Origin: Mycolicibacterium porcinum
GTDB taxonomy: Bacteria; Actinomycetota; Actinomycetes; Mycobacteriales; Mycobacteriaceae
Assembly: GCA_001942045.1 (NCBI GenBank)
Contig: MSTD01000011.1
Coordinates: 1 to 64,000 of the forward strand
Direction: 5' to 3'
DNA length: 64,000 nt
The notes under the pieces were generated by a model, which had not been told where the DNA came from, searched no databases, and saw only the letters and a program-made list of their open reading frames with translations. Position 1 is the first letter of the stretch; each line of letters begins with the position of its first letter. Positions 39,618-54,461 of the stretch are shown here, piece by piece. Made by a program: the position numbers and the translations under genes.

Positions 39618-39715
39618 TCCTCGGCCTCCCGGGCCGGCCGGCGTCGTGCTTCAGGATCGAAATGCAGCACCAGACCGACGATCAAGGCGATCAGGACGAA
39701 CAGGCTTCCGAGCAT
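39614..39715 (-). CDS. Small membrane peptide (33 aa) before AveC-like gene
   Basis: An ATG at 39715 opens a 33-codon frame: a hydrophobic segment (M-L-G-S-L-F-V-L-I-A-L-I-V-G-L-V-L-H-F) and a basic/acidic tail (D-P-E-A-R-R-R-P-A-R-E-A-E-E). It overlaps the following AveC-like start (GTGA) and fills the 119-bp gap after the SDR gene, which is why I believe it is translated. A GTG at 39730 would add five hydrophobic residues. No known family; a stabilising subunit of the AveC-like protein is a reasonable guess. Confidence 0.5.
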   Translation of the reverse strand: MLGSLFVLIALIVGLVLHFDPEARRRPAREAEE

Positions 39716-39736
39716 GATGATTACGCCCACTGTGCG

Positions 39737-40615
39737 TTACCGCCCAGGTCCGTTGGGCCACTTGAGCAATGAACCCGCATCCACGCGGATCTGCTGTCCG
39801 GTGATATAGCGGCTGTCGTCGCTGGCGAGGAACACGCCGAGGTTGGCCATGTCCTCGGGTTCGATGTACGGAATCGGCATGGCTTGGAAGATGGTGAACA
39901 GGGGCTCGGCATCCTCACGCGTAGCCTTCTTGCCCTGCTCGGTGAGATCGGGCCGGAACATGGAGTACATGCCGTCGTTCTGCAATAGATGCGTGTTGCA
40001 GTTGGTCGGGTGAATCGCGTTGACCCTGATCATCTTCGGGGCCAGATGCAGGCTCATCTCCTCGACGTACTCGATGACGACGCGCTTGCTCCACCCGTAC
40101 CCGGCCCCACCCGGGCCCATGTTGGGGTTGTCCGTGGTCCCCCGGATCATGCCGGCGGTCGAGCCGGTGACGATGATCGACGACCCGTCCGGCAGATGCG
40201 GGACGGTCACGGCCACCGTGTTCATCACGCCGACGAGGTCGACATCGGAGGCGTCGACGAACTGCATCGGGTCCGGCTTGCCCATCGCCATCGGCAGGAT
40301 GCCGGCATTGGCGACCACGATGTCGATCCTGCCGAGGTCGGCGATGCCGGCCTCGACCGCGTCGCGCAGTTCGTGGCGCTCGCGGACGTCGGCGACCCGC
40401 GCGACGACACGCCGGCCGAGTTCCTTGATCGCCCTTTCGGTTTCGGCGAGATCGTCGGGAGTGGCCAGCGGATAGGGGTTGGACGGAATGTCGCGGCAGA
40501 TGTCGACCGCGATGATGTCGGCGCCTTCGCGGGCCATCGCGATCGCGTGTGCCCGTCCTTGCCCGCGGGCGGCTCCGGTGATGAAAGCGACCTTGCCGTC
40601 AAGCTTTCCGGTCAT
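39737..40615 (-). CDS. Mycofactocin-coupled SDR family oxidoreductase
   Basis: A 292-residue paralogue of the SDR at 35832: T-G-A-A-R-G-Q-G (12-19), the D-I-C-R-D-I-P-S-N-P-Y-P-L-A-T-P-D-D-L insertion, Y-G-W-S-K active site and N-A-I-H-P-T-N-C-N-T-H. GGTAGGAG lies 8 nt upstream of the ATG. As in other mycofactocin-linked SDRs, its electrons should pass to mycofactocin rather than free NAD+. It follows the P450 at 40641 by 25 nt and precedes the small peptide and AveC-like genes. Confidence 0.92.
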   Translation of the reverse strand: MTGKLDGKVAFITGAARGQGRAHAIAMAREGADIIAVDICRDIPSNPYPLATPDDLAETERAIKELGRRVVARVADVRERHELRDAVEAGIADLGRIDIVVANAGILPMAMGKPDPMQFVDASDVDLVGVMNTVAVTVPHLPDGSSIIVTGSTAGMIRGTTDNPNMGPGGAGYGWSKRVVIEYVEEMSLHLAPKMIRVNAIHPTNCNTHLLQNDGMYSMFRPDLTEQGKKATREDAEPLFTIFQAMPIPYIEPEDMANLGVFLASDDSRYITGQQIRVDAGSLLKWPNGPGR

Positions 40616-40640
40616 GTGTGCTCCTACCTGTGCTGGCCGG

Positions 40641-41909
40641 TCAGGCGGCCGGTTTGAATTCGACGTGAAGCTCGCTCAGCCCGCGCATGATGAACGTCGG
40701 CTCATAGGTGTAACGACGGTCCTCGGCCGGTCCGTGGTGTTCGGTGGAGATCGTGATGTCGGACATCCGGTCCAGGATCCGGTTCAACGAGATCCGGCCT
40801 TCCGCGCGCGCCAATGGCGCGCCCGGACAGGAGTGCACCCCCCGGATGAAGGCGATCTGCTCGCGCACATTCGCACGGCCGGGCTGGAAGGTGTTGGGAT
40901 CGGGGAACTTACGTTCGTCGCGGTTGCATGCCCCGGGAAGCACCATGACCGTCGTTCCGGCGGGTACCTCGATGTCGCCGATGCTTGTGGTCCGGCTGGC
41001 CATCCTGAAGTGCGATTTGACCGGACTCTCCATTCGCAGTGTCTCCTCCAGGAACGACGGGATCTTGGACCGGTCGTCACGTAGCATCGTCTCGAATCCC
41101 GGGTTGTCCGCGATGAATCGGACCGCCGAGCTGACCAGTTTGGTCGTGGTCTCCGTGCCCGCCGCGAACAGGAACGTCGACAGGTTCATGACGTCCTCGA
41201 TGTCGGGGGTGGATCCGTCCTCGTACTTAGCCTGGGCCAACCCGGTCAGTACGTCGTCGCGCGGTACGCGCCTGCGGTCCTCGATGTAGGCATAGAACTT
41301 GTCGTTGAGCCACTGCAGGGGATTGTGCGTCGTCGGTGCTTCCTTGCCCAGCTCACCGACGGTCTCCAGCGCGAACGCCGCCTTGAACTCCTCGTGGTCC
41401 TCGCCCGGAACACCCAGTAGGTCGGCAATGACCAAGAGCGAGAAGGGCTTGGCGTAATCAGCCAGGAACTCGGCGGAGCCGCGGTCGACGAACGTGTCGA
41501 GTTGCTGATCGGCCAGCCGCCACATGAAGTCCTCGTTCTCCTTGAGGCGCTTCGGGGTGATCAGCTTGTTCATCAACCCGCGGGTGCGGGTATGCAGCGG
41601 AGGATCCTGCGACGTGATGTGCTCGCCCATCGGCACCGCGAGCCGGTGCTCCTCGATCAGGTCCGAGACGTCGTCGCTCTCCCCCGGTCCGAACGGCAGG
41701 CCGGAAAACGGCCCCGCCACCGAGACACACGACGAGAACGCCGGGTCCTTGTAGACGGCCAGCGCCTCGTCATAGCCGGTGACGGCCAGCACGTTGAACG
41801 GAGTCGCATGGGCGACAGGACACTTCGACCGCAGGTGATCGAAGTAGGGGTACGGGTCGGGTACCAGCGTCGGGTCGGTGAAGAAATCCACTGTCTCGAA
41901 GTCGGTCAC
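40641..41909 (-). CDS. Cytochrome P450 (paralogue of the one at 18296)
   Basis: A 422-residue P450 from a GTG at 41909 with AAGGAG 7 nt upstream; the upstream open frame is the repeat element at 41929-42012. Motifs: F-A-A-G-T-E-T-T-T (I-helix), E-E-T-L-R, and the heme loop I-R-G-V-H-S-C-P-G-A-P-L-A-R with Ile where most P450s have Phe-Gly. Start-to-end similarity to the P450 at 18296 is obvious, for example both share L-M-N-K-L-I-T-P-K-R-L-K-E-N-E-D-F-M-W-R-L-A-D-like segments. Both may belong to the CYP150-like group (tentative). Confidence 0.93.
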   Translation of the reverse strand: MTDFETVDFFTDPTLVPDPYPYFDHLRSKCPVAHATPFNVLAVTGYDEALAVYKDPAFSSCVSVAGPFSGLPFGPGESDDVSDLIEEHRLAVPMGEHITSQDPPLHTRTRGLMNKLITPKRLKENEDFMWRLADQQLDTFVDRGSAEFLADYAKPFSLLVIADLLGVPGEDHEEFKAAFALETVGELGKEAPTTHNPLQWLNDKFYAYIEDRRRVPRDDVLTGLAQAKYEDGSTPDIEDVMNLSTFLFAAGTETTTKLVSSAVRFIADNPGFETMLRDDRSKIPSFLEETLRMESPVKSHFRMASRTTSIGDIEVPAGTTVMVLPGACNRDERKFPDPNTFQPGRANVREQIAFIRGVHSCPGAPLARAEGRISLNRILDRMSDITISTEHHGPAEDRRYTYEPTFIMRGLSELHVEFKPAA

Positions 41910-41928
41910 ATCAGGCTCCTTTCTTCTC

Positions 41929-42012
41929 GCGAGCAGTCCCCCGCAAGCGGGAGGGGCCCCCAGCAAAATCGCGCAAACTCATGCCGTTCAGTGCGACTCT
42001 GTGTCTGCTCGC
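41929..42012. repeat. Palindromic intergenic element inside the P450 operon
   Basis: The 111-bp gap between two P450 genes has outer arms GCGAGCAG (41929-41936) and CTGCTCGC (42005-42012) and an inner CCCGC/GCGGG stem (about 41940-41952). The ends resemble those of the perfect palindrome at 54462 (CGAGCAGACGC...), so both may belong to one family of intergenic palindromes. It may act as an RNA-processing or attenuation element between the two P450 cistrons. Confidence 0.45.
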
Positions 42013-42020
42013 CAAAGGTG

Positions 42021-43229
42021 TCATCCGAACAGCACCGGCAGCGACGTCGGCGACCGGAAGACCTGCCCGCGGATGTGCGGATCGTCCCCGTCCGGGTCCA
42101 ACCGCAGGTTGGGCAACCGGTCCAGCAGCAGGTTGATGGCAGTGCGCATCTCGAGGCGCGCGAGGTGCATTCCCAGGCACACGTGCACCCCGTGGCCCCA
42201 GCCGAGATTGCCCTTGGCGGTGCGGAAGATGTCGAACTCGTCGGGGTTTTCCCACCGATCTTCCTGTCGATTCGCCGAACCGAGCATCGGCATCACCGAG
42301 CACCCCTCCGGGATGTGCACCCCACCCAGCTCGGTGGCACAGGTCGTGGTGCGGGTGATGGTCAGCAACGGCGGGTTCCAGCGCACCGCTTCCTCGATGG
42401 CCTGCGGCAGCAGCGATCGGTCGGCCCTGACCGCGTCCAGCTGCGTTGTGTCCGAGAGCAATCCGAACAGCAGGTTGCCCAGTGACCGGTATGTGGTCTC
42501 CACACCCGCGGGCAGCAGCAGTCGGAGGAACGAGAAGATCTCTTCGTCGGTGAGCTTCTCGCCGTCGATCTCCGCCTCGGCGAGCAGGCTGATCATGTCG
42601 TCCTTGGGCTCGGCACGACGGGCCTGCAGGATCGGTGCGAAGTACTCACACAGCGCAGCCGACGCCGCCAGCCCACGCTCCGGGTTCATGATCCAGCTCA
42701 GCAGCGAGATGGACCAGCGCTGGAACTGCGGATAGTCCTCCTCGGGCAGTCCCAGCAGCCCGGCGATGATGCGGCTCGGATAGTCGAATGTGAACTCCTT
42801 GACCAGGTCGACTTTGCCCTTGTCCGCGAAACTGTCGATCAGTTCGTTGGCGACGCGCCCGACGAGCTCGTCTTCCCAACGCGCCAACGCCTTTTGCGAG
42901 AACGCCTTCGATACCAGGGAACGCAGCCGGCCGTGCACCGGCTCGTCCATTCCCAGCATCACGCGGTCGCCGAGCACCGGGCCGAACGCCGCGATGACCC
43001 CCGACGACGAGAACGTCAGGTTGTCGCGCAGCATCTGCTGGGCGTCCTCGTAGCGGTACACGATGAAGACGGGTTTGCCTTCCTCCCCCGGCATCGCGGA
43101 CATGTCGATCCGTTGGATCGGTTCCTCGCGGCGAAGCCTGGCGAGTTCCGGGAACGGGTCCCGGACGTCACCGGAGACGGCGTCGTCGAACGAACCGAAG
43201 TCCTCGAGGTCGTCAAAAAGCTGTTCCAC
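42021..43229 (-). CDS. Cytochrome P450
   Basis: A 402-residue P450 with GAGGAGAAC before the GTG at 43229. I-helix L-L-L-P-A-G-V-E-T-T-Y (about 240), E-E-A-V-R (E-x-x-R, about 280) and heme loop L-G-W-G-H-G-V-H-V-C-L-G-M-H-L-A-R (about 335-350), with Trp instead of Phe at the start of the heme loop. The N-terminus and sequence differ from the other two P450 types in the window, so three P450 subfamilies are present. It follows the ALDH at 43242 by 12 nt. Confidence 0.93.
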   Translation of the reverse strand: MEQLFDDLEDFGSFDDAVSGDVRDPFPELARLRREEPIQRIDMSAMPGEEGKPVFIVYRYEDAQQMLRDNLTFSSSGVIAAFGPVLGDRVMLGMDEPVHGRLRSLVSKAFSQKALARWEDELVGRVANELIDSFADKGKVDLVKEFTFDYPSRIIAGLLGLPEEDYPQFQRWSISLLSWIMNPERGLAASAALCEYFAPILQARRAEPKDDMISLLAEAEIDGEKLTDEEIFSFLRLLLPAGVETTYRSLGNLLFGLLSDTTQLDAVRADRSLLPQAIEEAVRWNPPLLTITRTTTCATELGGVHIPEGCSVMPMLGSANRQEDRWENPDEFDIFRTAKGNLGWGHGVHVCLGMHLARLEMRTAINLLLDRLPNLRLDPDGDDPHIRGQVFRSPTSLPVLFG

Positions 43230-43241
43230 AGACGTTCTCCT

Positions 43242-44744
43242 CTACTGCGCCGGGTAGGCGACTGATTTCACTTCGGTGTACTGGCTGAAGCCCACGACCC
43301 CGTTCTGGCGCCCGACGCCGCTGTTCTTGTAGCCGCCGAATGGGGTGTCCGCGCCGTAGCCCGCGGTGCCGTTGAGCCCGATGAATCCCGCACGCAGCCG
43401 GCGTGCGACGGCCAGCGACCGCTCCAGCGAGCCGGACATGACGTTGCCGGCGAGTCCGTACGGACTGTCGTTGGCGATCCGGACGGCGTCGTCTTCGTCC
43501 TCGTAGGGAATGACAACGAGGACGGGTCCGAAGATCTCCTCCTGGGCGATGGTCATGGAGTTGTCCACATCGGCGAAAAGGGTTGGGTTGACCCAGAATC
43601 CCTTGGCATACAGATCCGATGCCGTCGGCGCTTCCGTACTGCCGACGAGCATGGTGGCGCCTTCGTCGACGCCGGTCCTGATGTAGCCAAGGATGCGGGA
43701 CTGCTGTTTGGCCGAGATGACCGGACCGCAGAGCGTTCCGGGATCCTGTGGATCGCCGGGGGCGATGTTCTCGTAGATGGCCTTCAGGATCGCGACGCCC
43801 TCGTCGTAGCGCGAGCGCGGCAACAGCATTCGGGTGGGAGCGGCGCAACCCTGCCCGGCGTGCAGCAACGGGCCGATACCGATCAGACATGCGGAGTTGA
43901 AGGCTGCGTCCTCCAAATCCTCCAACACGATCGTCGCCGACTTGCCGCCGAGTTCGAGGAACAACCGCTTCATCGTCGCGGCGCCTTTCTCCATGATCCG
44001 CTTGCCCACGGCCGTGGAGCCGGTGAAGGAGATCATGTCGACCTTCGGTGACAGGGTGAGTTCTTCGCCGACGAGGTGGTCCGACGCCGTCACGACATTC
44101 ACCACACCGGCTGGGATATCGGTGTTCTCGGCGATGAGCCGGCCGAGCCGCGTGGCGTTGAACGGTGTATCGGGCGCGGGTTTGAGCACCACCGTGTTGC
44201 CCGCCGCCAACGCCTGCCCAAGCTTGTTGACGGCCACCTCGAACGGGAAGTTCCACGGTACGATGGCACCGACCACACCGACCGGCTCGTGCCACACCTT
44301 GCGGGTGGTGTTCACCCCGGTGACGGATACCACCGTGTCGCCGAGATCGGTTTCCCACGGGAAGGTTTCGATCAGCCGGGCCGGGTATTTGAGGCCGTCG
44401 GCGAGCGGGGCGTCGAGTTGCGGTCCGTGCGTCACCGCACGCGGGGCACCGACTTCGCAGATGAGCTCCTCGCGCAGCTCCTCCACCTCGCGTTCGATGG
44501 CCTCGTGCAGTTGTTCGAGGCACCGCTTGCGGAACTGACGATCGGTGGACCAGCCGGTCTCGTCGAATGACCTTCGGGCCGCGTCGATGGCCCGATTCAT
44601 GTCGGCCTTCGACGCGTCGGCGACTTCTCCGAGCACGTCTTCGTTGGCCGGGTTGATGTTGACGAACGTGCCGGCCTCACCGTCGACGAGCTTGCCGTCG
44701 ATCAGCATTCTCGATTCGAAGTGGACTCTTGAGCGCTCAGCCAT
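43242..44744 (-). CDS. Aldehyde dehydrogenase (NAD(P)+)
   Basis: A 500-residue ALDH: F-T-G-S-T-A-V-G-K (about 247-255), E-L-G-G-K-S (about 270-275) and nucleophile in G-Q-G-C-A (Cys about 304). GGGGAG lies upstream of the ATG, which overlaps the stop of the SDR at 44737 by 8 nt. Related to but not a recent copy of the ALDH at 33344. In context it should oxidise an aldehyde produced by the P450/SDR steps to a carboxylate. Confidence 0.93.
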   Translation of the reverse strand: MAERSRVHFESRMLIDGKLVDGEAGTFVNINPANEDVLGEVADASKADMNRAIDAARRSFDETGWSTDRQFRKRCLEQLHEAIEREVEELREELICEVGAPRAVTHGPQLDAPLADGLKYPARLIETFPWETDLGDTVVSVTGVNTTRKVWHEPVGVVGAIVPWNFPFEVAVNKLGQALAAGNTVVLKPAPDTPFNATRLGRLIAENTDIPAGVVNVVTASDHLVGEELTLSPKVDMISFTGSTAVGKRIMEKGAATMKRLFLELGGKSATIVLEDLEDAAFNSACLIGIGPLLHAGQGCAAPTRMLLPRSRYDEGVAILKAIYENIAPGDPQDPGTLCGPVISAKQQSRILGYIRTGVDEGATMLVGSTEAPTASDLYAKGFWVNPTLFADVDNSMTIAQEEIFGPVLVVIPYEDEDDAVRIANDSPYGLAGNVMSGSLERSLAVARRLRAGFIGLNGTAGYGADTPFGGYKNSGVGRQNGVVGFSQYTEVKSVAYPAQ

Positions 44745-45627
44745 GGCCGGGGTTCTCCCCTCGTAGTGCGCCGAACCGCGGGATGCCCATCATCAGCCGG
44801 GTCATCTGGTGCAAGCCCGTTGTGGGTAGCAAGCGGTTGGCGATCAACAACATTCGTGCGTCCGGGCCGACGGCGGTCTTGACGAACGGTTTTCGGCTGT
44901 CGAGGGCTTTCGCCAGGCCCGCGGCGAATTTCTCGGGAGGCCGGGCCGCGCGCTTCATCATGGCCCGGCCCCGCTTGTCCATCGTTCGGTGGTGGCGAGC
45001 ATAGGGGCCGTCCAGGTCGCGGACATCTGTCGTACCCGCGTCGGTGATGATCTCCGTGTCATAGGTCCCGGTGACCAGAATCGTGACGCCGATCCCGAAC
45101 GGCGCGACCTCCCCCGCCATCGATTCGCCCCACCGTTCCAAGGCTCCCTTGACCGCGGAATACGGTGCGGTGGCCGGCATTCCACGAACACCGGCAGCAC
45201 TGGAGATCAGCACGATGCGGCCCCGCCCGGCCTCTCGCATCGACGGCAGCAACGCCTTGGTGAGCGTCACCGGGCCGAAGACGTTGGTCGCAAACATCCG
45301 CTCCCACAGGTCTGGCGGCGTCTCCTCGACCATTCCCACCGCCGAGATCCCGGCGTTGTGCACCACCGCATGTGGCGCGCCGACGGTTTCAGTGATGCCC
45401 TTGGCCGCCGCGGCGATCGACGCGGCGTCAGTGAGGTCGAGCTGGATACCGATCAGCCGGTCGTCGTCCTCGGCGGCTCCTGTCGCCTCCCGCAGCCGTG
45501 CTATTCCCTGATCTGGCGACCGCATCGCAGCGACGACGCGCCACCCCTCGTGATAAAGGCGCGTGGCCGATGCGAAGCCGAGCCCACGGGACGCGCCCGT
45601 GATCAGGACTGTCCGGAGCTCACTCAC
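44737..45627 (-). CDS. Short-chain dehydrogenase/reductase
   Basis: A 296-residue SDR from the GTG at 45627, which overlaps the AveC-like gene stop (AAGTGAG). T-G-A-S-R-G-L-G (residues 9-16), N-A-G-I, S-S-A-A-G and Y-S-A-V-K (about 165-169) are intact; the C-terminal half continues with K-F-A-A-G-L-A-K-A-L, typical of the large retinol-dehydrogenase-like SDRs. It probably handles a hydrophobic alcohol/ketone. It lies in the middle of a run of genes with start/stop overlaps, so the operon is continuous. Confidence 0.9.
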   Translation of the reverse strand: MSELRTVLITGASRGLGFASATRLYHEGWRVVAAMRSPDQGIARLREATGAAEDDDRLIGIQLDLTDAASIAAAAKGITETVGAPHAVVHNAGISAVGMVEETPPDLWERMFATNVFGPVTLTKALLPSMREAGRGRIVLISSAAGVRGMPATAPYSAVKGALERWGESMAGEVAPFGIGVTILVTGTYDTEIITDAGTTDVRDLDGPYARHHRTMDKRGRAMMKRAARPPEKFAAGLAKALDSRKPFVKTAVGPDARMLLIANRLLPTTGLHQMTRLMMGIPRFGALRGENPGHG

Positions 45628-46751
45628 TTCTGGTTCCCCGTCGCGCATCGATCGCTCTTCGAACCCAACTCGACGTCGGGGTTGCGGGCCGGGCCCTGCT
45701 GCCAGGTGGACCACTTGCCCACCGAGTACGGCCCCTCGGCTCCGTTCGCCCGGTAATAGCCCTGCGGGTCATAAATCTTCGCCTCCGGATATGGCCACGG
45801 GCACGCCACCGAGGTGGCCAGACCGCTGGCCTTGATCGCCCAGAACCAGCCGCCGTAGGCGAAGTACGACACGTTGATGATCGCGAACATCACCAGGAAG
45901 GTGCCGAGCACAGGCTTCGACGGGAAGAGTCTCGCCTTGGCAGCGAGCTTCTCCGCCACCGACTTTCCCGTGTCGTCCCGGTACACCAGGATCGCCGCCG
46001 GGACCATCACGAAGGTCACCGACAATGACTCCCAGATGAGTGGGAACTGAAAGGTGCTGCCGGGGAACAACGTTCCGAAGGGTATCGCCTGCGAGTAGAT
46101 GTACAGCCCGGTGCGCACCAGGCTGACCTCGAGAATGGCGTCGAAGATGAAGCCGATGACCAGGACCAGGGCGCCCAGGCTGATCAGCGGGTGCCGGGTG
46201 ACGAACGCCTCCGGACCGTATTTGGCCTGCAGCTTGCGCAGGATCCAGATTCCCGGGAAGTACGGCCCGAAGTAGAACAGTACGTAGCCGAAGACGATGA
46301 ACGGTTCCACCGTCGGCGACATCATGATCAGGTACCAATTCACCGGCCAGTGCAGCAGCATGGGGTTGTAGACCGCGTACGGCGACCAGTTCATGATCGG
46401 GTCCTGCCAGACGATCAGCGTCGTGCACAGCACCATGAGCAGCACCGGGCTTCCGGGGTTCTTACGCCAGCCGACGATGAACATCACGGTGAACACCACG
46501 ACGATGATCACGGCGCCCACCTGGGGAATGATCTGCCAGTGATCGAACGCGGTCAGGAACGCGACGGGACGTGGCCGCCCCTCGACGTTCGGATTCGCCA
46601 CCCGCGGGTCGACGTCCGTGCGGCCGACGGCGACGAACAGGCCGAGAAAGCCGAGCCAGGCCAGCAGTGCGATCACCCGGCCCCAGTTCGGGCCCTTGCG
46701 CACCGGCCGCTTCACATGTGTCTCGGGTGGCAGCGATTCCTGTGTGGTCAT
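45624..46751 (-). CDS. AveC-like (spirocyclase family) membrane protein
   Basis: A 375-residue protein starting at the ATG at 46751 (GGAG 8 nt upstream); the open frame upstream overlaps the binding-protein gene. About seven hydrophobic segments are seen, with the family features W-Q-D-P-I-M-N-W-S-P-Y-A-V-Y-N-P (about 112-127), H-W-P-V-N-W-Y, E-P-F-I-V-F-G-Y and F-D-A-I-L-E-V-S. AveC-type proteins are the only named relatives; whether the mycobacterial proteins form spiroketals, dehydrate or merely bind a lipid is unknown. Its neighbours (SDR, ALDH, two P450s) suit chemistry on a hydroxylated lipid at the membrane. Confidence 0.75.
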   Translation of the reverse strand: MTTQESLPPETHVKRPVRKGPNWGRVIALLAWLGFLGLFVAVGRTDVDPRVANPNVEGRPRPVAFLTAFDHWQIIPQVGAVIIVVVFTVMFIVGWRKNPGSPVLLMVLCTTLIVWQDPIMNWSPYAVYNPMLLHWPVNWYLIMMSPTVEPFIVFGYVLFYFGPYFPGIWILRKLQAKYGPEAFVTRHPLISLGALVLVIGFIFDAILEVSLVRTGLYIYSQAIPFGTLFPGSTFQFPLIWESLSVTFVMVPAAILVYRDDTGKSVAEKLAAKARLFPSKPVLGTFLVMFAIINVSYFAYGGWFWAIKASGLATSVACPWPYPEAKIYDPQGYYRANGAEGPYSVGKWSTWQQGPARNPDVELGSKSDRCATGNQK

Positions 46752-46752
46752 G

Positions 46753-47868
46753 TCACTCCGCCCCGAAGCGATCAACCAGGTGCGAGTTGATGCCGTCCGC
46801 ATCGAGAGTCCGGGCGACCAGGTAACCCGGCCCCATCCATGCCCTCCGGGTCCACTTCCCGAGGGACACCCGGGTTCCGGGCGCACCGGAAGCGGCCGGC
46901 ATCATCTTCACGCGCTCGAGCGCCTCCTTGACCCCGCGCGGACTCAGCGGATGCGCATCGGTGAAGGCACGCACCAGCGTCGCGGCGACGTCGTGGTTGA
47001 CCACCGTCACGCAGTACTCGGGACGACTTCCGTTGTACCGCTTGGCGTATCTATCCATCCAGGCCTGTCCGACGGGGTTGCCCTCGTCGTACTGATCGAC
47101 CCCGATCCAGCCGAGGAACGCGTTCCACATGATCGGGTTCACCCAGGCGTTCTGGAACGCGGTGGTGGTGAAGCGCGGCGGATCCCAGTTGACGGCCTCA
47201 AGCGCCGGGTTGATGAACACGATGCCGAAACCGAATCCGAGATGGACGATCGCCTCGGCCTTGGCTTCGTGCAGCGTGCTGACCGCGGCGTTGATGTCCT
47301 GAGCGGTCTGCGCGATCGCCGCTTCGGCGACGATCCGAATACCCTTGCGGGCACATGCGGTTCGCAGATTCTTCAGATAGCTGTCGCCGATGAGGTTCTG
47401 CTCCACGAGCACACCGATGTCGGTCAGCCCTCGCTTCGCGACCAGATCCGCCAGAAAGATGGGCTCGTCCGTCATCGATCCCTGCGGGAAGGCGAACGTC
47501 CACTCGCCGAGCCAATCGTCGGTTCCGGTGACGCTGATCGCCGGAACCTTGAAGCGCTCTTCGATCGCCTCCCGCAGCGGCACGCAGTTGTCGGTGATGT
47601 TCGGCCCGAACACCACCAGGCAGCCCTGGTCGACGAGTTCGCCGTAGGCGTCGATCACGGCCTTCACCGAACCCTTCGGCAGCCCTTCCACCTCGCGGTA
47701 GATCATCTGCACCGGCCGATCCATCAGCCCCTGCTGGACGGCCTCTTCGAACATCAGGTCAAAGGTCCGGGTGAAGGACGCCTTCAGTTCTTCCGGGAAC
47801 CCGGGCGGCAACGTGAAGTCCATCAGGTAGCCGACCTTGATGGGCTCCGCAGTGCTCTCGTACGACAT
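46753..47868 (-). CDS. Periplasmic-binding-fold protein (LivJ-like) without signal peptide
   Basis: A 371-residue protein of the Leu/Ile/Val-binding (type I PBP) fold: I-K-V-G-Y-L-M-D-F (residues 10-18), V-F-G-P-N-I-T-D-N (about 85) and the hinge regions of this family. GGAGG directly precedes the ATG, and there is no N-terminal hydrophobic stretch or lipobox, so it should remain in the cytosol unless it is exported by another route. No ABC permease or ATPase genes lie nearby. In mycobacterial catabolic clusters such orphan binding proteins may act as cytosolic sensors or lipid binders. First gene of the operon behind the 18-mer box at 47912. Confidence 0.75.
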   Translation of the reverse strand: MSYESTAEPIKVGYLMDFTLPPGFPEELKASFTRTFDLMFEEAVQQGLMDRPVQMIYREVEGLPKGSVKAVIDAYGELVDQGCLVVFGPNITDNCVPLREAIEERFKVPAISVTGTDDWLGEWTFAFPQGSMTDEPIFLADLVAKRGLTDIGVLVEQNLIGDSYLKNLRTACARKGIRIVAEAAIAQTAQDINAAVSTLHEAKAEAIVHLGFGFGIVFINPALEAVNWDPPRFTTTAFQNAWVNPIMWNAFLGWIGVDQYDEGNPVGQAWMDRYAKRYNGSRPEYCVTVVNHDVAATLVRAFTDAHPLSPRGVKEALERVKMMPAASGAPGTRVSLGKWTRRAWMGPGYLVARTLDADGINSHLVDRFGAE

Positions 47869-47911
47869 CTGACCTCCATGATGCGGTGTCCATCGCGGGG
47901 ACCACCGGGGA

Positions 47912-47929
47912 GTGACCTAATATTTGTTC
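47912..47929 (+). promoter_or_regulatory. Shared 18-mer box, site 3
   Basis: GTGACCTAATATTTGTTC, 44 bp upstream of the binding-protein gene. It agrees with site 1 (50651) at 13 of 18 positions. Confidence 0.6.
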
Positions 47930-47956
47930 TGAACGTAACGGGGCTGTGGCACCCCG

Positions 47957-48805
47957 TCAATCACCGGCTGCCGATTCGCCAAGGTAGACATCGATCAACT
48001 CGTGGAGACCGCGGCTGACCGCAACGTCATCGGTCAACGGCCCCGCGATCGCCACTCGGGCCGCCACGGGGACGGGCAGTCCTTCGGCGATCAGCCGGCC
48101 GGCTGCGATCAACACCCGCGTCGACGCGACTTCCCGCAGGCCACCGGTCTCCAGCCGCCGGATGGCCTGCCCAAATCGCACCAGCTCGCTGGCGGTGCGC
48201 TGATCCACCCCCGCCTCGTGGGCGATGATGCCCTCTTCGACATCGGGGGCCGGGAATCCGAACTCGATGGCCACCATTCGCTGACGGGTCGAGTCCTTGA
48301 GGTCTTTGAGGACACTTTGGTAGCCCGGGTTGTACGACATCACCAGGCCGAATCCGGGCGCCGCGTCCAGCGTGATGCCGAGGCGCTCGATCGGCAGCTG
48401 GCGGCGGTAGTCGGCGAGGGGGTGCAATACCACCGTGGTGTCCTGGCGGGCTTCGACCACCTCGTCCAGGTAACAGATCGCACCCTCGCGCACCGCCCGG
48501 GTGAGCGGACCGTCCACCCAGACCGTCTCGTCGCCCCGCAACAGGTACCGCCCGACCAGGTCGGCGGTGGTGAGGTCGTCATGACAGGCGACGGTGATCA
48601 GCGGCCGGCCGAGGTCGTGTGCCATCGCCTCGACAAAGCGCGTCTTGCCGCACCCGGTCGGACCCTTGAGGACAAGCGAAAGACCTTGGCGATACGCCGC
48701 CTTGAAGACTGTCTCTTCATTGCCGACCGGCTTGTAGTAGGGGCGCTCACTCAACGCCTGCGAACTGGCACCGTTCTGGTGAGCGAGCCCGGACTCGTTG
48801 ACCAT
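47957..48805 (-). CDS. MoxR-family AAA+ ATPase (NorQ/CbbQ-like)
   Basis: A 282-residue AAA+ protein. The ATG at 48805 is chosen over the GTG at 48811 because AAAGG lies 7 nt before it. Walker A G-P-T-G-C-G-K-T (about residues 47-54), Walker B A-I-C-Y-L-D-E (about 110), sensor 1 in M-S-Y-N-P-G-Y (about 160) and an arginine-rich C-terminal sensor-2 part. NorQ/CbbQ proteins work with VWA proteins (NorD/CbbO) as chaperone or activase pairs for metal enzymes or Rubisco. Its VWA partner gene lies upstream (48938). The target enzyme in this cluster is unknown. Confidence 0.9.
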   Translation of the reverse strand: MVNESGLAHQNGASSQALSERPYYKPVGNEETVFKAAYRQGLSLVLKGPTGCGKTRFVEAMAHDLGRPLITVACHDDLTTADLVGRYLLRGDETVWVDGPLTRAVREGAICYLDEVVEARQDTTVVLHPLADYRRQLPIERLGITLDAAPGFGLVMSYNPGYQSVLKDLKDSTRQRMVAIEFGFPAPDVEEGIIAHEAGVDQRTASELVRFGQAIRRLETGGLREVASTRVLIAAGRLIAEGLPVPVAARVAIAGPLTDDVAVSRGLHELIDVYLGESAAGD

Positions 48806-48859
48806 CGACACACCTTTCGTCGTATCCGCAACGCTGCGGTACCCAGCGAGCGTAACGCG

Positions 48860-48877
48860 GAACAGATGTTTGTTTCA
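48860..48877 (-). promoter_or_regulatory. Shared 18-mer box, site 2
   Basis: The minus strand reads TGAAACAAACATCTGTTC, matching site 1 at 14 of 18 positions, in the 132-bp gap between the VWA and MoxR genes. It is the most divergent copy in its left half. Confidence 0.45.
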
Positions 48878-48937
48878 ACTGTTCGTTACCAGCTTCCGCC
48901 CACGACACTGGCTCGAATCGCATTCTGCGACTTGCCA

Positions 48938-50623
48938 TCACGACACCCGGCGCCGGACCTCGCCAGAGCGGATCGCCGAGCGAAACATCGGACCGATGAC
49001 ACCGGCGAGCTGATCGGGGCCGGAGATGGTGGCGTGGGCGGCACTCCCGAACACGCGTCGCAGCGACTCCACGTCGGTACTGGCACCGATGGTCAGGCAC
49101 ACGGCGCCGGTGCCTCGGCGCCGCGCCTCGGCCAGAGCGCGTCGGGCATCGGCAGCGCCGTAGGCCCGCTCGTATCCGTGGTCGTAAGCCAGGCCGTCGG
49201 ACAGCACCACCAGTAGTCGCCGAGAGGTGCCGCCGCGCTCCTCCAGGACCGCCGCGCCATGCCGGATCGCCGCCCCGAGTCTCGAATATGAGCCGGGCTC
49301 AAGGCTGTTCAGCCGTCGGATCACCTGCGCGTCCAGATGGTCGTTGAACCGCTTGACCGGCACCATGGTCACCGCCGACCGGCCCTGGGAGTAGTAGGCG
49401 TACAACGACACCCGGTCGCCCAGATCGTGCAACGACACCATCAGATGGGCCACCGCCGTGCGCTGCTGCTGGTGCACGGTACGGCCGACCGTGCCTGGCT
49501 CCGCGGTCGAACCAGAGACGTCCAGCAACAGCAACACCGACAGATCCCGCCGGCGCCGCAGACTGTCCAGGTACACGGCCTCGTCAGGGACCGATCCGGC
49601 CCGGACTTCGACGCGGGCCTCCAGCGCGGCGTCGATGTCGATGTCGTCACCCTGCGGTTGGCGGTGACGCCGGTGCAGCCCCATACCGAGGCGGGCCAGC
49701 GGACGCCGGACGCTGATCGCATCCTCGATCTGCTGGGTGGCGGATGGCTTGATCTGCGCATCAGCCTCGCGAACCGTGCACCAGTCCAACCGGTACACCT
49801 TGCGCTCGGCGTTCCATTCCGGGTACTTCACCCCTTCGGTCTTGATGTCGACCACTTCCTCCGACGGCGTGGTGGCCAACGACGAGACTGCGTGCACGCC
49901 ACGCTTTGTCGAGTTGGTGCGGTGGGTTGGCGAGTCGGCACCGGGCGGTCCCCCGCCGTTGCCACCGGTCTTGCGCGCTGAGGACAACAGCTTCTTGAGC
50001 CATTTTCCGATCGCCCCGCCGCCGCCGACCGGGCTCGAGAACAGATCAGGGTCATCCGAATCGTCGAAGTCGCTGTCGTCGAGTTCCTCAAGCTCCCGGT
50101 TACCCTGCCGCCGCGGGATATGGCCAATTGAGTGTTCATCCACCGGATTGGCCGCCGCGCATGCCGCCAGTACCTTCTTGGCGCGAATCACACCGAAGGC
50201 GGTCGGCGGGTCGTTCGGCACATACCCCCCGCGGGCCAGCTCCAGCGACTTCGTTGGCGAATCAGTGCGCTCACCGATGCTCTGGTCAGCCAGCGCAGCA
50301 AGGGAATTCGGCAACAGGGCGTGATTGGCCAACAACGCGCGATGGCCTTCGATCGCCAGGTAGCGCTTGGCCAGGCGACGACGCCGGACCAGGGCGCCGA
50401 TCACCTCGGGGTCCAGGCTTCCCGCTGCGATCAGCGACGCCTGCACTGCCACCGATTCAAGCTGTGTGCGGACCGGCGCAGTCGGATCGACGAACACCAT
50501 CTCGCCATCGGTCCACGGTCCGGTACCCACATCGGCAGCGGCCACGGCGACCGGGCGGGCTGCGAGCGCCGAGGCCAGCAGACCCAACCCGGAGAATCGG
50601 TCATCGCCACCGCCGTCCGACAC
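48938..50623 (-). CDS. VWA-domain protein (NorD/CbbO-like) partner of MoxR ATPase
   Basis: A 561-residue protein starting at the GTG at 50623, which has GGAGG 6 nt upstream; a TTG frame start at 50698 would place the 18-mer box inside the coding sequence and was rejected. The N-terminal half is variable with an acidic E-E-L-D-D-S-D-F-D-D-S-D-D-P-D stretch (about 200) and a glycine-rich linker; the C-terminal half has the VWA domain with an intact MIDAS motif D-V-S-G-S-T (about 392). NorD/CbbO-type proteins bridge the MoxR hexamer and its client. It is the first gene of a block running to 38838. Confidence 0.88.
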   Translation of the reverse strand: MSDGGGDDRFSGLGLLASALAARPVAVAAADVGTGPWTDGEMVFVDPTAPVRTQLESVAVQASLIAAGSLDPEVIGALVRRRRLAKRYLAIEGHRALLANHALLPNSLAALADQSIGERTDSPTKSLELARGGYVPNDPPTAFGVIRAKKVLAACAAANPVDEHSIGHIPRRQGNRELEELDDSDFDDSDDPDLFSSPVGGGGAIGKWLKKLLSSARKTGGNGGGPPGADSPTHRTNSTKRGVHAVSSLATTPSEEVVDIKTEGVKYPEWNAERKVYRLDWCTVREADAQIKPSATQQIEDAISVRRPLARLGMGLHRRHRQPQGDDIDIDAALEARVEVRAGSVPDEAVYLDSLRRRRDLSVLLLLDVSGSTAEPGTVGRTVHQQQRTAVAHLMVSLHDLGDRVSLYAYYSQGRSAVTMVPVKRFNDHLDAQVIRRLNSLEPGSYSRLGAAIRHGAAVLEERGGTSRRLLVVLSDGLAYDHGYERAYGAADARRALAEARRRGTGAVCLTIGASTDVESLRRVFGSAAHATISGPDQLAGVIGPMFRSAIRSGEVRRRVS

Positions 50624-50650
50624 CCGATACCTCCGCACCACTCGCCGCCG

Positions 50651-50668
50651 TTGACCAAATATCTGTTC
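50651..50668 (+). promoter_or_regulatory. Shared 18-mer box, site 1
   Basis: TTGACCAAATATCTGTTC, 28 bp upstream of the VWA gene start and 70 bp upstream of the divergent SDR gene, so it can serve both promoters. Confidence 0.6.
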
Positions 50669-50737
50669 CACCGTAGAGTTCGGCCCCACCGGAGTCAATC
50701 GAACGAGCGGGAAACATCAACTACTAAGGGCGGCAAA

Positions 50738-51667
50738 GTGATCGACTTCAACCACCAGGTGGCGGTCGTGACCGGGGCCGGGCGCGGCCTCGGCCGGGTG
50801 TACGCGCTCGAACTGGCACGGCGCGGGGCCGCGGTCGTGGTCAACGACCTGGGCGGCACAATGGCGGGCCAGGGCTCGGACGCCGCGGTGGCCGACCAGG
50901 TGGTGGAGGAGATCACGGCGGCCGGCGGGACCGCGGTAGCGTCCTACGCCTCGGTCGATACCCCAGCGGGCGGTGCGGCGATCGTTCGCACCGCTGTCGA
51001 ACGGTTCGGCCGGCTCGACGCTGTGATCAGCAATGCGGGCATCTTCAACAGCATCCCGTTCGACGAGCTGACCCCCGAGGATTGGCGACGCATGTTGAGC
51101 GTCCACCTCGACGGCGGCTTCTACCTGGCCCAGCCCGCGTACCGGGTGATGAAGAGCCAGGGCTACGGCCGGTTCGTCTTCATCGCGTCCTCGGCGGGGA
51201 TGTTCGGTCAGCATCTGGAGGCGCACTACGCGGCAGCCAAAGCCGGCCTGGTCGGGCTCAGCAACGTGATCGCCCTCGAGGGCGCTCCGTACGGCATCCT
51301 CGCCAACACGGTCCTGCCCTTTGGCATCTCACGCATGGTCACCGAGACCCTCGCTGACCCGAAAGTGCTTGCAGACAACGAATTTTTCGACGCGATCCGG
51401 CCGGAATTAGTCGCACCGCTGGTGGTGTACCTGGCGAGCCGCGATTGCACGCTCAGCCACCAGAGCTTCTCAGCCTGCGCCGGTCGGTTCGCCCGCGTGT
51501 TCGTCGGGCTGAGCGAGGGCTGGATGACACAGTCGGGCAGCACCCCCAGCCCTGACGACATCGCCGCGCGCCTCTCGGAAATCACTGCGACAGAGCCGTT
51601 CACGATCCCCGGGTCGATCTACGACGAAGTGTTCGCAGTGTCCGAACGGCTCGGGGTCACCGCATGA
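50738..51667 (+). CDS. SDR, multifunctional-enzyme-2 type (3-hydroxyacyl-CoA dehydrogenase-like)
   Basis: A 309-residue SDR from a GTG at 50738 (AAGGGCGG upstream); longer frame readings overlap the VWA gene. V-T-G-A-G-R-G-L-G-R (13-22), V-V-N-D-L-G-G (38-44, diagnostic of the MFE-2/17beta-HSD4 dehydrogenase type), N-A-G-I, S-S-A-G-M and Y-A-A-A-K (about 166-170). These proteins oxidise (3R)-hydroxyacyl-CoA intermediates in beta-oxidation of branched or ring-derived acyl-CoAs. It is divergent from the VWA gene and adjacent to the double-TetR gene. Confidence 0.9.
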   Translation: MIDFNHQVAVVTGAGRGLGRVYALELARRGAAVVVNDLGGTMAGQGSDAAVADQVVEEITAAGGTAVASYASVDTPAGGAAIVRTAVERFGRLDAVISNAGIFNSIPFDELTPEDWRRMLSVHLDGGFYLAQPAYRVMKSQGYGRFVFIASSAGMFGQHLEAHYAAAKAGLVGLSNVIALEGAPYGILANTVLPFGISRMVTETLADPKVLADNEFFDAIRPELVAPLVVYLASRDCTLSHQSFSACAGRFARVFVGLSEGWMTQSGSTPSPDDIAARLSEITATEPFTIPGSIYDEVFAVSERLGVTA

Positions 51668-51770
51668 CGCCGGCCCGGCGTGACGAGCAACCGGCGCTCG
51701 GATGCAGGTGATCTACCGGCGCCTTTGGCTCCACGGGATCCCCGGCGCACCAGCACTGTTCTGGTAGCCT

Positions 51771-51788
51771 CTAACCAAATATTGGGTC
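51771..51788 (+). promoter_or_regulatory. Shared 18-mer box, site 5
   Basis: CTAACCAAATATTGGGTC, 16 bp before the double-TetR start codon, consistent with autoregulation. The centre (CCAAATATTGG) is more palindromic than in the other copies. Confidence 0.55.
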
Positions 51789-51803
51789 GGAGACCCAAGT
51801 CGT

Positions 51804-53156
51804 ATGACGGGAGCCAGCAATCATCGTGGAGCCGCTGTGGGCCGTCCCCAGGTAACGCCTGGGGAGCGCAAGACGCTCAAGCGCACCCCAGGTCGCGCAG
51901 CTGATGTCGGTCCCGCAGCGGAGGATCGGACACGCCGGACCGAGATCCTCGAGACGGCTGCCACGTTGATCGCGACGTCGGGCCTGCGCACGTCGCTCCA
52001 TGAGATCGCGGATGCGGCCGGCATCCTGCCGGGCAGTCTGTATCACCATTTCGAATCCAAGGAAGCGATCCTGGTCGAGCTCCTCGAGCGTTATCACGAG
52101 GATCTCGACCGTATCGCCGAGCACGCCCAGAGCCGGCTGGACGGGCCCGATCCGGCGTCGCCGTTCGACCGCATCGCCGCACTCGGCTCGGACATCGCGC
52201 GGTGCGCCGTCGCGCACCGCGCCGCCCTGCAGATGTCCTTCTACGAGAGCCCGAGCTCCAACCCCGACCTCGTCGCACTGGCGCAGCGCCGTCCGACGGC
52301 AATGCTGGACGCCATGCAGCAGACCCTGCGGGCCGCCCGCTGGGCCGGCTATCTGCGCTCCGACGTCGATCTGGCCGTACTGGCCGACCGGATCTGCCAG
52401 TCCATGCTGCAGGTAGGCCTCGACGTGATGCGTCACAACGCCGCGCCGGAGAAGGTCGCCACCCTGCTGTGCCGGATTCTGCTGGAAGGCTTGTCGTCCG
52501 GTCACCCCACCGACGCCGAACTCGACAGGTCTCTGCCTTTCGGGGCGGCCGACGCCGTGGTGCGGAGCTGGATCGAGGAAGGCCGGGCCGAGACAGACGA
52601 CAAGACCGCTCACATCCGGGCCGTGGCGCGGGCCGAGTTCGGCCGCCGCGGCTACGAGAGCACGACCGTGCGGGACATCGCGTCCGCGGCGGGCATGGGA
52701 ACCGGCACGGTCTACCGGCTCATCGGGTCGAAGGACGAACTGCTCGCGGCGATCATGCAGTCGTTCGGCGAGAAGATCGCCGTCGGCTGGACAGAGGTCC
52801 TCGGGTCCCGGGGCACGACGGTCGAGAAACTCGATGCACTCAGCTGGATCCACACCAACGCGCTCGACCAGTTCGGAGATGAGTTCCGGATCCAACTGGC
52901 CTGGATGCGTCAGTCACCCCCGGACACCCCGAACCCGGGCTGGTTGTTCACCAAGCGTGTCAGGCAGGTGAAATCGCTTCTCGCCGATGGGATCAAGGCT
53001 GGTGAGATCAGCATCGACAGCCCGTCGAACGAGATGCTGGCCCGGTCGGTGATCGGCGTGGGCTGGATACCCGAGAACATCCTGCGAGAGTTGGGCACCC
53101 GCGCATCACAGATTCACGTCCGCGACACCAGCCTGCGCGGCGTGGTCGCGCGCTAG
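51804..53156 (+). CDS. Tandem double-TetR regulator (Mce3R-like architecture)
   Basis: A 450-residue protein containing two complete TetR domains in one chain. The first helix-turn-helix is I-L-E-T-A-A-T-L-I-A-T-S-G-L-R-T-S-L-H-E-I-A-D-A-A-G-I-L-P-G-S-L-Y-H-H-F (about 48-84) and the second A-V-A-R-A-E-F-G-R-R-G-Y-E-S-T-T-V-R-D-I-A-S-A-A-G-M-G-T-G-T-V-Y-R-L (about 272-310). Normal TetR proteins have about 200 residues. Mce3R of M. tuberculosis has the same fused architecture and binds a non-palindromic site; here the sequence differs, so I claim only the architecture. ATG at 51804 is used; a GTG at 51837 with GGAG 5 nt upstream is an equally good start. It is most likely the factor that binds the non-palindromic 18-mer boxes. 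Confidence 0.9.
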   Translation: MTGASNHRGAAVGRPQVTPGERKTLKRTPGRAADVGPAAEDRTRRTEILETAATLIATSGLRTSLHEIADAAGILPGSLYHHFESKEAILVELLERYHEDLDRIAEHAQSRLDGPDPASPFDRIAALGSDIARCAVAHRAALQMSFYESPSSNPDLVALAQRRPTAMLDAMQQTLRAARWAGYLRSDVDLAVLADRICQSMLQVGLDVMRHNAAPEKVATLLCRILLEGLSSGHPTDAELDRSLPFGAADAVVRSWIEEGRAETDDKTAHIRAVARAEFGRRGYESTTVRDIASAAGMGTGTVYRLIGSKDELLAAIMQSFGEKIAVGWTEVLGSRGTTVEKLDALSWIHTNALDQFGDEFRIQLAWMRQSPPDTPNPGWLFTKRVRQVKSLLADGIKAGEISIDSPSNEMLARSVIGVGWIPENILRELGTRASQIHVRDTSLRGVVAR

Positions 53157-54226
53157 TCGAAAACGTACCGCGGCAACGTATTCGGGATATCGAGTGAGCT
53201 CAACAAGCCTGCCGGTGCATCGACAACGTAGGGAATCGCGTTGACCACCCGCATCGCGGTGGCGGCCATCGCGGCCCGCCCGGCACCGTGGCCTTCGTCC
53301 TCCCCCAGGTTCATCGCGCAGTGGATGTCTGGGTCACCCTCGATGTCCACCCGGTAGGTGGCGTCGAATTCCGATGCCGGCCAGTCGGGTGCGACGTCGC
53401 GCGACATCCGGATGATGTGCTCGATCACGATGGCCTCGCGGCCGTTCACCACGCCGGCCGCGCGCGTGCAGACGGCACCGCACGTCCCCGCGGCGATGGT
53501 GCCGAACGCCACCTCGATGTCACGCTCGGTGATCCGCCGGTCCAGGGAGCCGTGGATCTCGGACACCTCGGCGCCCAGCGCGTCGGCCATCAGATGAATA
53601 GGAGCCTTCCAGGCCATCTCGATGAATCCCGGTGTCTTGAGCATCGGTTCGAATTCGAGCTCGCGGCCGAATCCCATCCCGTCCATCATCACGTCGGCCA
53701 CCGGATAGTGGTCATTGAGGGACACCTCGGTGACCGTGAGGCGGTCGATCTTCTTGGACTGTGTCGCCAGCATGAGCGCCAGCTGATCTGAACCGAACCC
53801 GGGAAAGACTCCCGACGCGTAGAACGAGGAATCGCCCGCCTTCGCCGCCGCCCCCAGTTGGTCGCGCCACTCAACTGAGTAGTAGGCGGGCGGGTACACA
53901 AGCCCGGTCGATGTCGTTGACACCACGTTGATCCCGGCGTTCAGCAGACGCAGATAGTCCGGCACTGCGCCGGCGTCACGGTCTGGCCCACTCGCCGCGT
54001 ACACCACGCAGTCGGGGGCCGATTCGATCAGGACGTCGGCGTCGTTGGTCGCTTGGACGCCGAGCGCGGCGCGCCCGGCCAACACGCCCGCGTCCTGTCC
54101 CACCTTCGCCGCCGAGTGCACCCAGACGCCGGCCAGTTCGAGATCCGGTCGCCCGGCGATCGCGTCGATCGCCATCGATCCGACGCCGCCTGTCGACCAG
54201 ACGACGATTCGCAAAGGTCTCGGCAC
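53153..54226 (-). CDS. NAD(P)-dependent dihydrodipicolinate-reductase-like dehydrogenase
   Basis: A 357-residue protein starting at the GTG at 54226 (GAGGAG 6 nt upstream). The Rossmann start R-I-V-V-W-S-T-G-G-V-G-S-M-A (residues 5-18) and the C-terminal dimerisation fold resemble dihydrodipicolinate reductase and 2,4-diaminopentanoate dehydrogenase, a group that occurs in many mycobacterial lipid clusters without a proven substrate. It has no lysine-synthesis context. Its stop overlaps the double-TetR stop by 4 nt (convergent). The nearest box (site 4) lies 201 bp upstream, beyond the LLM remnant. Confidence 0.82.
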   Translation of the reverse strand: MPRPLRIVVWSTGGVGSMAIDAIAGRPDLELAGVWVHSAAKVGQDAGVLAGRAALGVQATNDADVLIESAPDCVVYAASGPDRDAGAVPDYLRLLNAGINVVSTTSTGLVYPPAYYSVEWRDQLGAAAKAGDSSFYASGVFPGFGSDQLALMLATQSKKIDRLTVTEVSLNDHYPVADVMMDGMGFGRELEFEPMLKTPGFIEMAWKAPIHLMADALGAEVSEIHGSLDRRITERDIEVAFGTIAAGTCGAVCTRAAGVVNGREAIVIEHIIRMSRDVAPDWPASEFDATYRVDIEGDPDIHCAMNLGEDEGHGAGRAAMAATAMRVVNAIPYVVDAPAGLLSSLDIPNTLPRYVFD

Positions 54227-54236
54227 CGAGTACTCC

Positions 54237-54416
54237 TCACTGTGCTGTTCGAGCAGGTCCGCCCGCATGCTCGGCCGCCACCCCAGAGCAGCAGTGCCAG
54301 CCGCTCATCGGCCGACTGGCCGTGCGTGCCCTTCTCCACACCGGAGGCGTATGGGCGCTGCAGAGGTCAGACGTCGGGATGTGCGGCGCACGCATGTCGA
54401 ATCGCAGCGCGAACAT
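54237..54416 (-). pseudogene. Possible remnant of an LLM flavin-dependent oxidoreductase
   Basis: The minus strand from ATG 54416 reads M-F-A-L-R-F-D-M-R-A-P-H-I-P-T-S-D-L, very like the first 18 residues of LLM-class (luciferase-like, F420 or FMN) oxidoreductases, but after about residue 18 the sequence stops resembling the family and a stop follows at about residue 60. A frameshift plus large internal deletion would explain it. It begins 11 bp after box site 4, so that box may originally have driven an LLM gene; the reductase at 53153 now follows it. Confidence 0.4.
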
Positions 54417-54426
54417 CACGCCGACC

Positions 54427-54444
54427 CTAACCTAAGTTTTGTTC
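54427..54444 (+). promoter_or_regulatory. Shared 18-mer box, site 4
   Basis: CTAACCTAAGTTTTGTTC, matching site 3 at 14 of 18 positions. It precedes the LLM remnant by 11 bp and the reductase at 53153-54226 by 201 bp. Confidence 0.5.
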
Positions 54445-54461
54445 CGCGTCACCGAAAGGCG

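What the first reader, a model, noticed from the sequence alone, without database searches (positions are those of the whole stretch)
47912..54444. A non-palindromic 18-mer shared by five promoters next to a double-TetR regulator
Seen: sites at 50651, 48860, 47912, 54427 and 51771 align to about YTRACCWAATATYTGTTC. They sit 28, 55, 44, 11 and 16 bp before the VWA gene, MoxR gene, binding-protein operon, LLM remnant and the double-TetR gene. Known: the fused double-TetR protein Mce3R binds a non-palindromic site. Inference: this protein is the regulator and controls NorD/MoxR, AveC, ALDH, three SDRs and two P450s as well as itself.
Basis: partly seen in the sequence, partly recalled or inferred. 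Interest (0 to 1): 0.8.

Follow-up and report, generated by a model that had tools for sequence, protein, structure and literature searches.

The report
Shared switch sites for double-TetR repressor
Five promoters around an oxidative-metabolism gene cluster in a mycobacterium carry the same short, almost palindromic DNA site, which tracks a two-in-one TetR protein in related genomes and is very probably the switch that this protein binds, though the binding itself was not tested here.

The parts
51804..53156 (+). double-TetR regulator (450 aa, two TetR_N domains; M1 HTH about residues 42-90, M2 HTH about 268-318)
50651..50668 (+). operator TTGACCAAATATCTGTTC between VWA (-) and SDR1 (+); overlaps the SDR1 -35 (TTGACC-N17-TAGAGT)
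   Evidence: 0 mismatches; the one promoter-like match in 47800-54500, where shuffles give 0.7; same 18-mer in 39 of 39 hits of the SDR1/VWA class
48860..48877 (-). operator TGAAACAAACATCTGTTC before MoxR; overlaps a TTGAAA -35 (by eye); right-right half-sites
   Evidence: 3 mismatches; MoxR class in 55 of 81 sources, 55 of 55 in the same orientation
47912..47929 (+). operator GTGACCTAATATTTGTTC before the BP operon, just after a TACGTT -10 on the - strand (by eye)
   Evidence: 1 mismatch; BP class 53 hits in 52 of 81 sources, 53 of 53 in one orientation; context
51771..51788 (+). operator CTAACCAAATATTGGGTC before the regulator itself, directly after an extended -10 (TGGTAGCCT); left-left half-sites
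   Evidence: 2 mismatches; own-promoter site in 74 of 84 regulator upstream regions, 67 of the 74 with TGnTAnnnT abutting
54427..54444 (+). operator CTAACCTAAGTTTTGTTC before an LLM gene remnant (- strand)
   Evidence: 2 mismatches; 158 bp upstream of the DAP-DH-like gene start; intact LLM at the same place in L040
54237..54419 (-). remnant of a luciferase-like monooxygenase gene (60-codon frame)
   Evidence: compare L040:14177-15142
48938..50623 (-). VWA (NorD/CoxE-like) gene
   Evidence: PF13519, PF05762; start codon inferred at 50623
47957..48805 (-). MoxR/NorQ/CbbQ-type AAA+ ATPase gene
   Evidence: PF07728 and CbbQ_C PF08406; start inferred
50739..51667 (+). SDR1, divergent from VWA, downstream of the 50651 operator
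   Evidence: PF00106 on the enclosing ORF 50132-51667; start inferred
46753..47868 (-). BP: Peripla_BP_6 protein, first gene of the long operon
   Evidence: PF13458 E 8.8e-24
38838..46886 (-). rest of the presumed operon: AveC1, SDR2, ALDH, CYPa, CYPb, SDR3, AveC2
   Evidence: Pfam hits; same strand, gaps of at most about 120 bp between listed ORFs; operon membership inferred
53153..54268 (-). DapB/DAP-dehydrogenase-like gene downstream of the 54427 site
   Evidence: PF19328; that it is co-controlled is inferred

Best explanation
The five sites are operators of the double-TetR protein encoded at 51804-53156, an autoregulated repressor of the surrounding cluster. One chain probably folds into an M1-M2 pseudo-dimer like Mce3R and puts its two different HTHs on the two halves of a 16-bp imperfect palindrome, RACCWAAT|ATYTGTTC. 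Bound there it blocks the -35/spacer of SDR1 and MoxR and the start region of the BP operon and of its own gene; a ligand from the pathway, perhaps an acyl-CoA, releases it. Shown by sequence: the sites, their conservation, co-occurrence and promoter overlap, and a predicted fold. Inferred: binding, repression, ligand, and the asymmetric reading of the two halves.
For: Sites confirmed. 313 hits against 0 for the reversed pattern in 80 related loci. Co-occurrence in 198 genus genomes: 108 both, 3 motif only, 13 regulator only, 74 neither. In 249 order genomes the exact core is in 21, all among the 27 with the regulator; in 151 family genomes the VWA site is in 9, all among the 15 with the regulator. 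Of the 13 regulator-only genomes 12 have at least one hit of 17 bits or more in the fetched stretch around the regulator. A matrix trained without the regulator's upstream regions finds an own-promoter site in 74 of 84, against a mean of 0.41 and a maximum of 7 for 200 column-shuffled matrices. Two regulator genes with no cluster nearby (L045, L061; their genomes G113 and G326 give no BP match) keep an own-promoter site. Extended -10 abutting 67 of 74 own sites, against 49 of 924 upstream tiles. Operators overlap promoters. Fold matches Mce3R over both halves. Among 19 ORFs scanned between 36.8 and 59.3 kb only the regulator has an HTH family hit.
Against: No binding or expression data. Regulator and cluster nearly always occur together, so co-occurrence alone cannot tell which the motif follows; genomes are related and the samples overlap, so the Fisher p of 1.4e-36 is overstated. 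G329 has a regulator gene with no site in 10 kb (L114). 10 of 84 regulator upstream regions lack a site of 10 bits (two of them, L044 and L052, have weaker ones of 7.6 and 9.5). G155 and G290 have cluster and sites without a found regulator (fragmented assemblies; in G290 the contig ends near where the gene is expected), and G214 has one site and neither gene. In G001 one site outside the locus scores as well as the weaker locus sites. Relatives of 30-32% identity (L169-L171) show no site. The half-site asymmetry fails at MoxR (36 of 55 right-right) and at 28 of 65 own promoters (left-left).
Confidence: 0.86

Rival explanations
1. The same protein is the regulator, but it binds the near-palindrome as an ordinary symmetric dimer (M1 with M1, or M2 with M2, from two chains), and the one-position asymmetry is drift.
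For: 12 of 16 core positions of the VWA site are symmetric. Symmetric variants are common at some promoters: MoxR 36 of 55 right-right, own promoter 28 of 65 left-left; of 130 distinct sites 91 are LR, 17 LL, 4 RR, 1 RL, 17 undecided, and the matrix was trained on sites near the LR pattern, which favours LR. A diverged relative has a 14-bp perfect palindrome AACAGAATTCTGTT (L116).
Against: The asymmetry recurs at unrelated target promoters (SDR1/VWA class 39 of 39, BP 51 of 53) and orientation is fixed per promoter at BP and MoxR. The predicted fold matches the intra-chain M1-M2 arrangement of Mce3R.
Confidence: 0.18
2. The motif is the operator of some other regulator, and the double-TetR gene is only one of its targets.
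For: Regulator and cluster travel together, so linkage does not separate them; G329 keeps the regulator without a site.
Against: Two regulator genes without the cluster nearby keep a site. No other HTH family was hit in the 19 ORFs scanned. Autoregulation is typical of TetR regulators (general knowledge).
Confidence: 0.08
3. The motif is a promoter element for an alternative sigma factor.
For: The left end of the site doubles as a -35 (TTGACC, TTGAAA) at SDR1 and MoxR.
Against: Orientation relative to the gene differs by promoter (BP 53 of 53 with the L half nearer the gene, MoxR 55 of 55 with the R half nearer), and at BP and at the regulator the site lies after the -10. A sigma element would keep one orientation and spacing.
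Confidence: 0.02
4. Chance similarity among AT-rich stretches.
For: The consensus was fitted to the five sites.
Confidence: 0.005

Closest known systems
Mce3R (Rv1963c) of Mycobacterium tuberculosis, a double-TFR repressor (PMC11667970; passages seen)
   Different: 16-18% identity; sequence search matches Mce3R only in the first half; operator here is one 16-18-bp imperfect palindrome per promoter rather than two 25-bp asymmetric sites 53 bp apart; no mce gene among the 19 ORFs scanned
KstR2 (PMC3068626; passages seen)
   Same: The M1 half is close to KstR2 and RHA5900 with a nearly identical recognition-helix region in the alignment; the KstR2 motif AnCAAGnnCTTGnT starts with AnCA, as both half-sites here can
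   Different: Single-unit protein; symmetric 14-bp site; different regulon
NorQ/NorD MoxR-VWA pairs (PMC9976466; abstract and outline seen)
   Same: The two target genes MoxR and VWA look like such a pair
   Different: No nitric oxide reductase among the 19 ORFs scanned; client unknown

Membership tests
TetR family regulators | TetR_N helix-turn-helix domain | tested here: met
   PF00440, two stretches, E 4.8e-28
Double-TFR proteins (Mce3R type) | two TetR units fused in one chain | tested here: met
   450-aa open frame; 35-sequence alignment with both HTHs conserved
Double-TFR proteins (Mce3R type) | intra-chain M1-M2 fold with two different HTHs | tested here: met
Double-TFR proteins (Mce3R type) | DNA binding needs both HTHs on one asymmetric site | not testable with these tools
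   needs binding assays with HTH mutants
Mce3R orthologues | sequence orthology to Mce3R | tested here: not met
   profile matches 9b7y only at positions 22-151 and more weakly than KstR2; 16-18% identity by structure
Mce3R orthologues | operator of two 25-bp asymmetric sites 53 bp apart | tested here: not met
   in the window one 18-bp match per promoter, itself an imperfect palindrome
KstR2 family | single-unit protein with symmetric AnCAAGnnCTTGnT operator | tested here: not met
   fused protein and different motif; KstR2 motif from PMC3068626

The most novel reading that the evidence does not exclude
A hybrid-operator code: one double-TetR chain reads two different half-sites, L (RACCWAAT) and R (GAACARAT). 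Most target promoters carry one of each, MoxR is often right-right, and the regulator's own promoter is left-left in this window's group but right-left in most slow growers and in two Nocardia loci, so that half-site composition would tune how tightly each promoter is held.
Probability: 0.28. Interest if true: 0.65.

Novelty: new member of a known kind. Interest (0 to 1): 0.48.

Why it matters
Double-TetR regulators are a known but little-studied group: the Mce3R paper (passages) cites a prediction of 204 in actinomycetes and calls its own structure the first for a duplicated TFR. This gives a second member with a defined operator, target promoters and 80 natural loci to compare; the regulator is found in 121 of 198 sampled genomes of the genus. 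A near-palindrome with a recurrent asymmetric position makes the question of how two unlike HTHs in one chain read DNA directly testable. It also names the likely switch of an uncharacterised P450/AveC/SDR/MoxR-VWA cluster.

Tried and rejected
In G001 17 places with up to 3 mismatches stand against 6 for the reversed pattern. Scored by the matrix, five of the six best of these lie in the orthologous locus and one does not (L016, 21.1 bits, above the own-promoter site at 20.4); that one and the weaker outside sites were not followed.

I tried to assign M1 and M2 to the R and L halves from diverged relatives. L116 has a right-right site and a changed M2 helix, but other relatives with changed M2 helices (L105, L117) keep left-right sites, and L116 itself also has a left-right site. 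I dropped the assignment. One of the 103 rows (L077) gave only gaps in the HTH columns and was ignored.

Literature: full-text searches for double, tandem or fused TetR proteins, for Mce3R (30 of 64 papers listed), for AveC/MoxR/P450 clusters and for TetR with P450 clusters in Mycolicibacterium listed no paper that by title or abstract treats this regulator or operator; the lists are capped. PMC4482099 (passages) tabulates motifs for 30 mycobacterial TetR regulators by Rv number; the logos are not in the text, so an overlap cannot be excluded. GplR1 (PMC12455991, passages) is called unusual, but the passages shown do not describe a double TetR.

The exact 16-mer in viral contigs gave 19 stretches, which I take as chance by a rough estimate of my own; the protein gave no plasmid match at E 1e-30.

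Limits of the counts: the 80 loci are the best 80 of 382 relatives, so they favour close relatives. One search used 84 upstream regions (80 loci, the window, and second copies in L024, L041 and L059). L104 and L113 are the same contigs as L045 and L061 (equal contig lengths and positions), so regulator genes without the cluster that keep a site count as two, not four. Positions 1-2 of the 18-mer partly reflect the -35 box. Gene classes use only homologues of window genes; 49 of 354 hits fell near no such gene. The genus, family and order samples overlap.

Full report
Observation. Read against the sequence the distances to the VWA, MoxR, BP and LLM-remnant starts are 28, 55, 44 and 11 bp as stated; for the double TetR it is 15. 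The window is from a mycobacterium: the regulator is 94% identical to that of M. porcinum and 97% to that of G001.

Is it more than a fitted consensus? The double-TetR gene was used to fetch 80 loci of Mycobacterium, Mycolicibacterium and Nocardia (best 80 of 382). They hold 313 pattern hits and no hit of the reversed pattern in 1.6 Mb. A matrix from 48 distinct 18-mers gives 390 hits at 13 bits or more (264 at 20 or more); the reversed matrix gives 8 and 0, three column-shuffled ones 3, 4, 7 and 0, 0, 0. Among distinct contexts the site is more conserved than its flanks: SDR1/VWA 1.00 against 0.35 and 0.64, MoxR 0.93 against 0.33 and 0.41, BP 0.86 against 0.28 and 0.49, own promoter 0.72 against 0.30 and 0.35 (the sites were picked by score, which flatters them).

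Does the motif follow the regulator? With TTGACCAAATATCTGTTC (up to 1 mismatch) and the protein (E to 1e-40), 198 genus genomes split into 108 both, 3 motif only, 13 regulator only, 74 neither. Of the 13, the fetched stretches hold at least one hit of 17 bits or more in 12; G329 has none. Of the 3, G155 and G290 are fragmented assemblies, and the G290 contig ends near where the gene is expected; G214 has one site and neither gene. In 151 family genomes 9 have the motif, all among 15 with the regulator; in 249 order genomes the exact core is in 21, all among 27 with the regulator and in none of the 222 others. These samples overlap and the genomes are related, so the p-value is only indicative. 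The BP gene is present in nearly the same genomes (123 of 198, five of these only by weak matches of E 1e-81 to 1e-89), so co-occurrence does not separate regulator from cluster.

What speaks for the regulator is its own promoter. The matrix was trained without the 350 bp upstream of regulator genes and still finds a site of 10 bits or more in 74 of 84 such regions; 200 column-shuffled matrices give 0.41 on average and 7 at most. In two species the regulator has no cluster genes beside it in the fetched flanks and keeps the site (L045 and L061; no BP match in the same genomes). An extended -10, TGnTAnnnT, abuts 67 of the 74 sites; among all 22-nt tiles upstream of these genes 49 of 924 hold one. 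More diverged relatives in other families also have sites nearby, for example L157 (54% identity, 17.9 bits) and L161 (41%, 22.1 bits); L160 (44%) and the 30-32% relatives L169-L171 have none at 8 bits, and L159 (45%) only a weak one.

Anatomy of the site. The core GACCAAAT|ATCTGTTC read on the other strand is GAACAGAT|ATTTGGTC; 12 of 16 positions agree. The recurrent difference is at positions 5 and 16 of the 18-mer: ACC in the left half, AAC in the right half. Of 130 distinct sites 91 are left-right, 17 left-left, 4 right-right, 1 right-left and 17 undecided; by class, SDR1/VWA is left-right in 39 of 39 and BP in 51 of 53, but MoxR is right-right in 36 of 55 and the own promoter left-left in 28 of 65. 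In the window VWA, BP and LLM are left-right, MoxR right-right and the regulator's own site left-left. In most slow growers shown the own site reads TAACAAA..TTTGGTT, thus right-left. So 'non-palindromic' is too strong; 'pseudo-palindrome with a recurrent asymmetry' is accurate, and the exceptions weaken the case that the asymmetry is functional.

Where it sits. At the divergent SDR1 promoter TTGACC-N17-TAGAGT is the one promoter-like match in 47.8-54.5 kb (0.7 expected in shuffles), and its -35 is the left end of the operator; the -10 is kept in relatives. At MoxR the operator overlaps a TTGAAA -35, with TAGGCT-like -10 sequences downstream. At BP and at the regulator's gene it lies just after the -10. 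Orientation relative to the gene is fixed at BP (53 of 53 one way) and at MoxR (55 of 55 the other way), which speaks against a sigma-factor element and for an operator.

Regulon. In the window the operators serve VWA and SDR1 (one site, divergent), MoxR, the BP-AveC-SDR-ALDH-P450-P450-SDR-AveC operon, the regulator, and a decayed LLM gene. Where parts of the cluster lie elsewhere in relatives they can carry their own site, for example before CYPb in L105 and L167. The MoxR/VWA pair resembles NorQ/NorD chaperone pairs (PMC9976466, abstract); its client here is unknown.

Verdict. Observation confirmed; interpretation supported but unproven at the bench; a second double-TetR regulon with a defined operator, and a corrected description of that operator.

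Noticed in passing
window 54462-54519: 28-nt inverted repeat, 96% complementary with 2 nt between the arms, between the LLM remnant and an acyl-CoA dehydrogenase gene; possibly a bidirectional terminator or a small repeat element.
   Followed up: partly
window 54237-54444: The LLM gene has decayed to a 60-codon frame but its operator is still a good match (27.9 bits); an intact gene exists in L040.
   Followed up: partly
window 18302-19585, 33359-34777, 35835-36674: Paralogues of the cluster's P450, ALDH and SDR (61, 48 and 52% identity) in the left part of the window, with no site of 13 bits or more there.
   Followed up: no
window 46753-47868: The Peripla_BP_6 protein starts without an evident signal peptide (by eye), so it may be a cytoplasmic ligand binder.
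   Followed up: no
L024, L041, L059: Two double-TetR genes in one locus; the 61-62% copies follow SDR1 and have no own-promoter site.
   Followed up: partly
L116 642-659: At the VWA/ACAD1 promoter of a 48% relative the site contains a 14-bp perfect palindrome AACAGAATTCTGTT.
   Followed up: partly
window 51782-51798: An extra GACCCAA half-site forms a small inverted repeat with the right half of the regulator's own operator.
   Followed up: no
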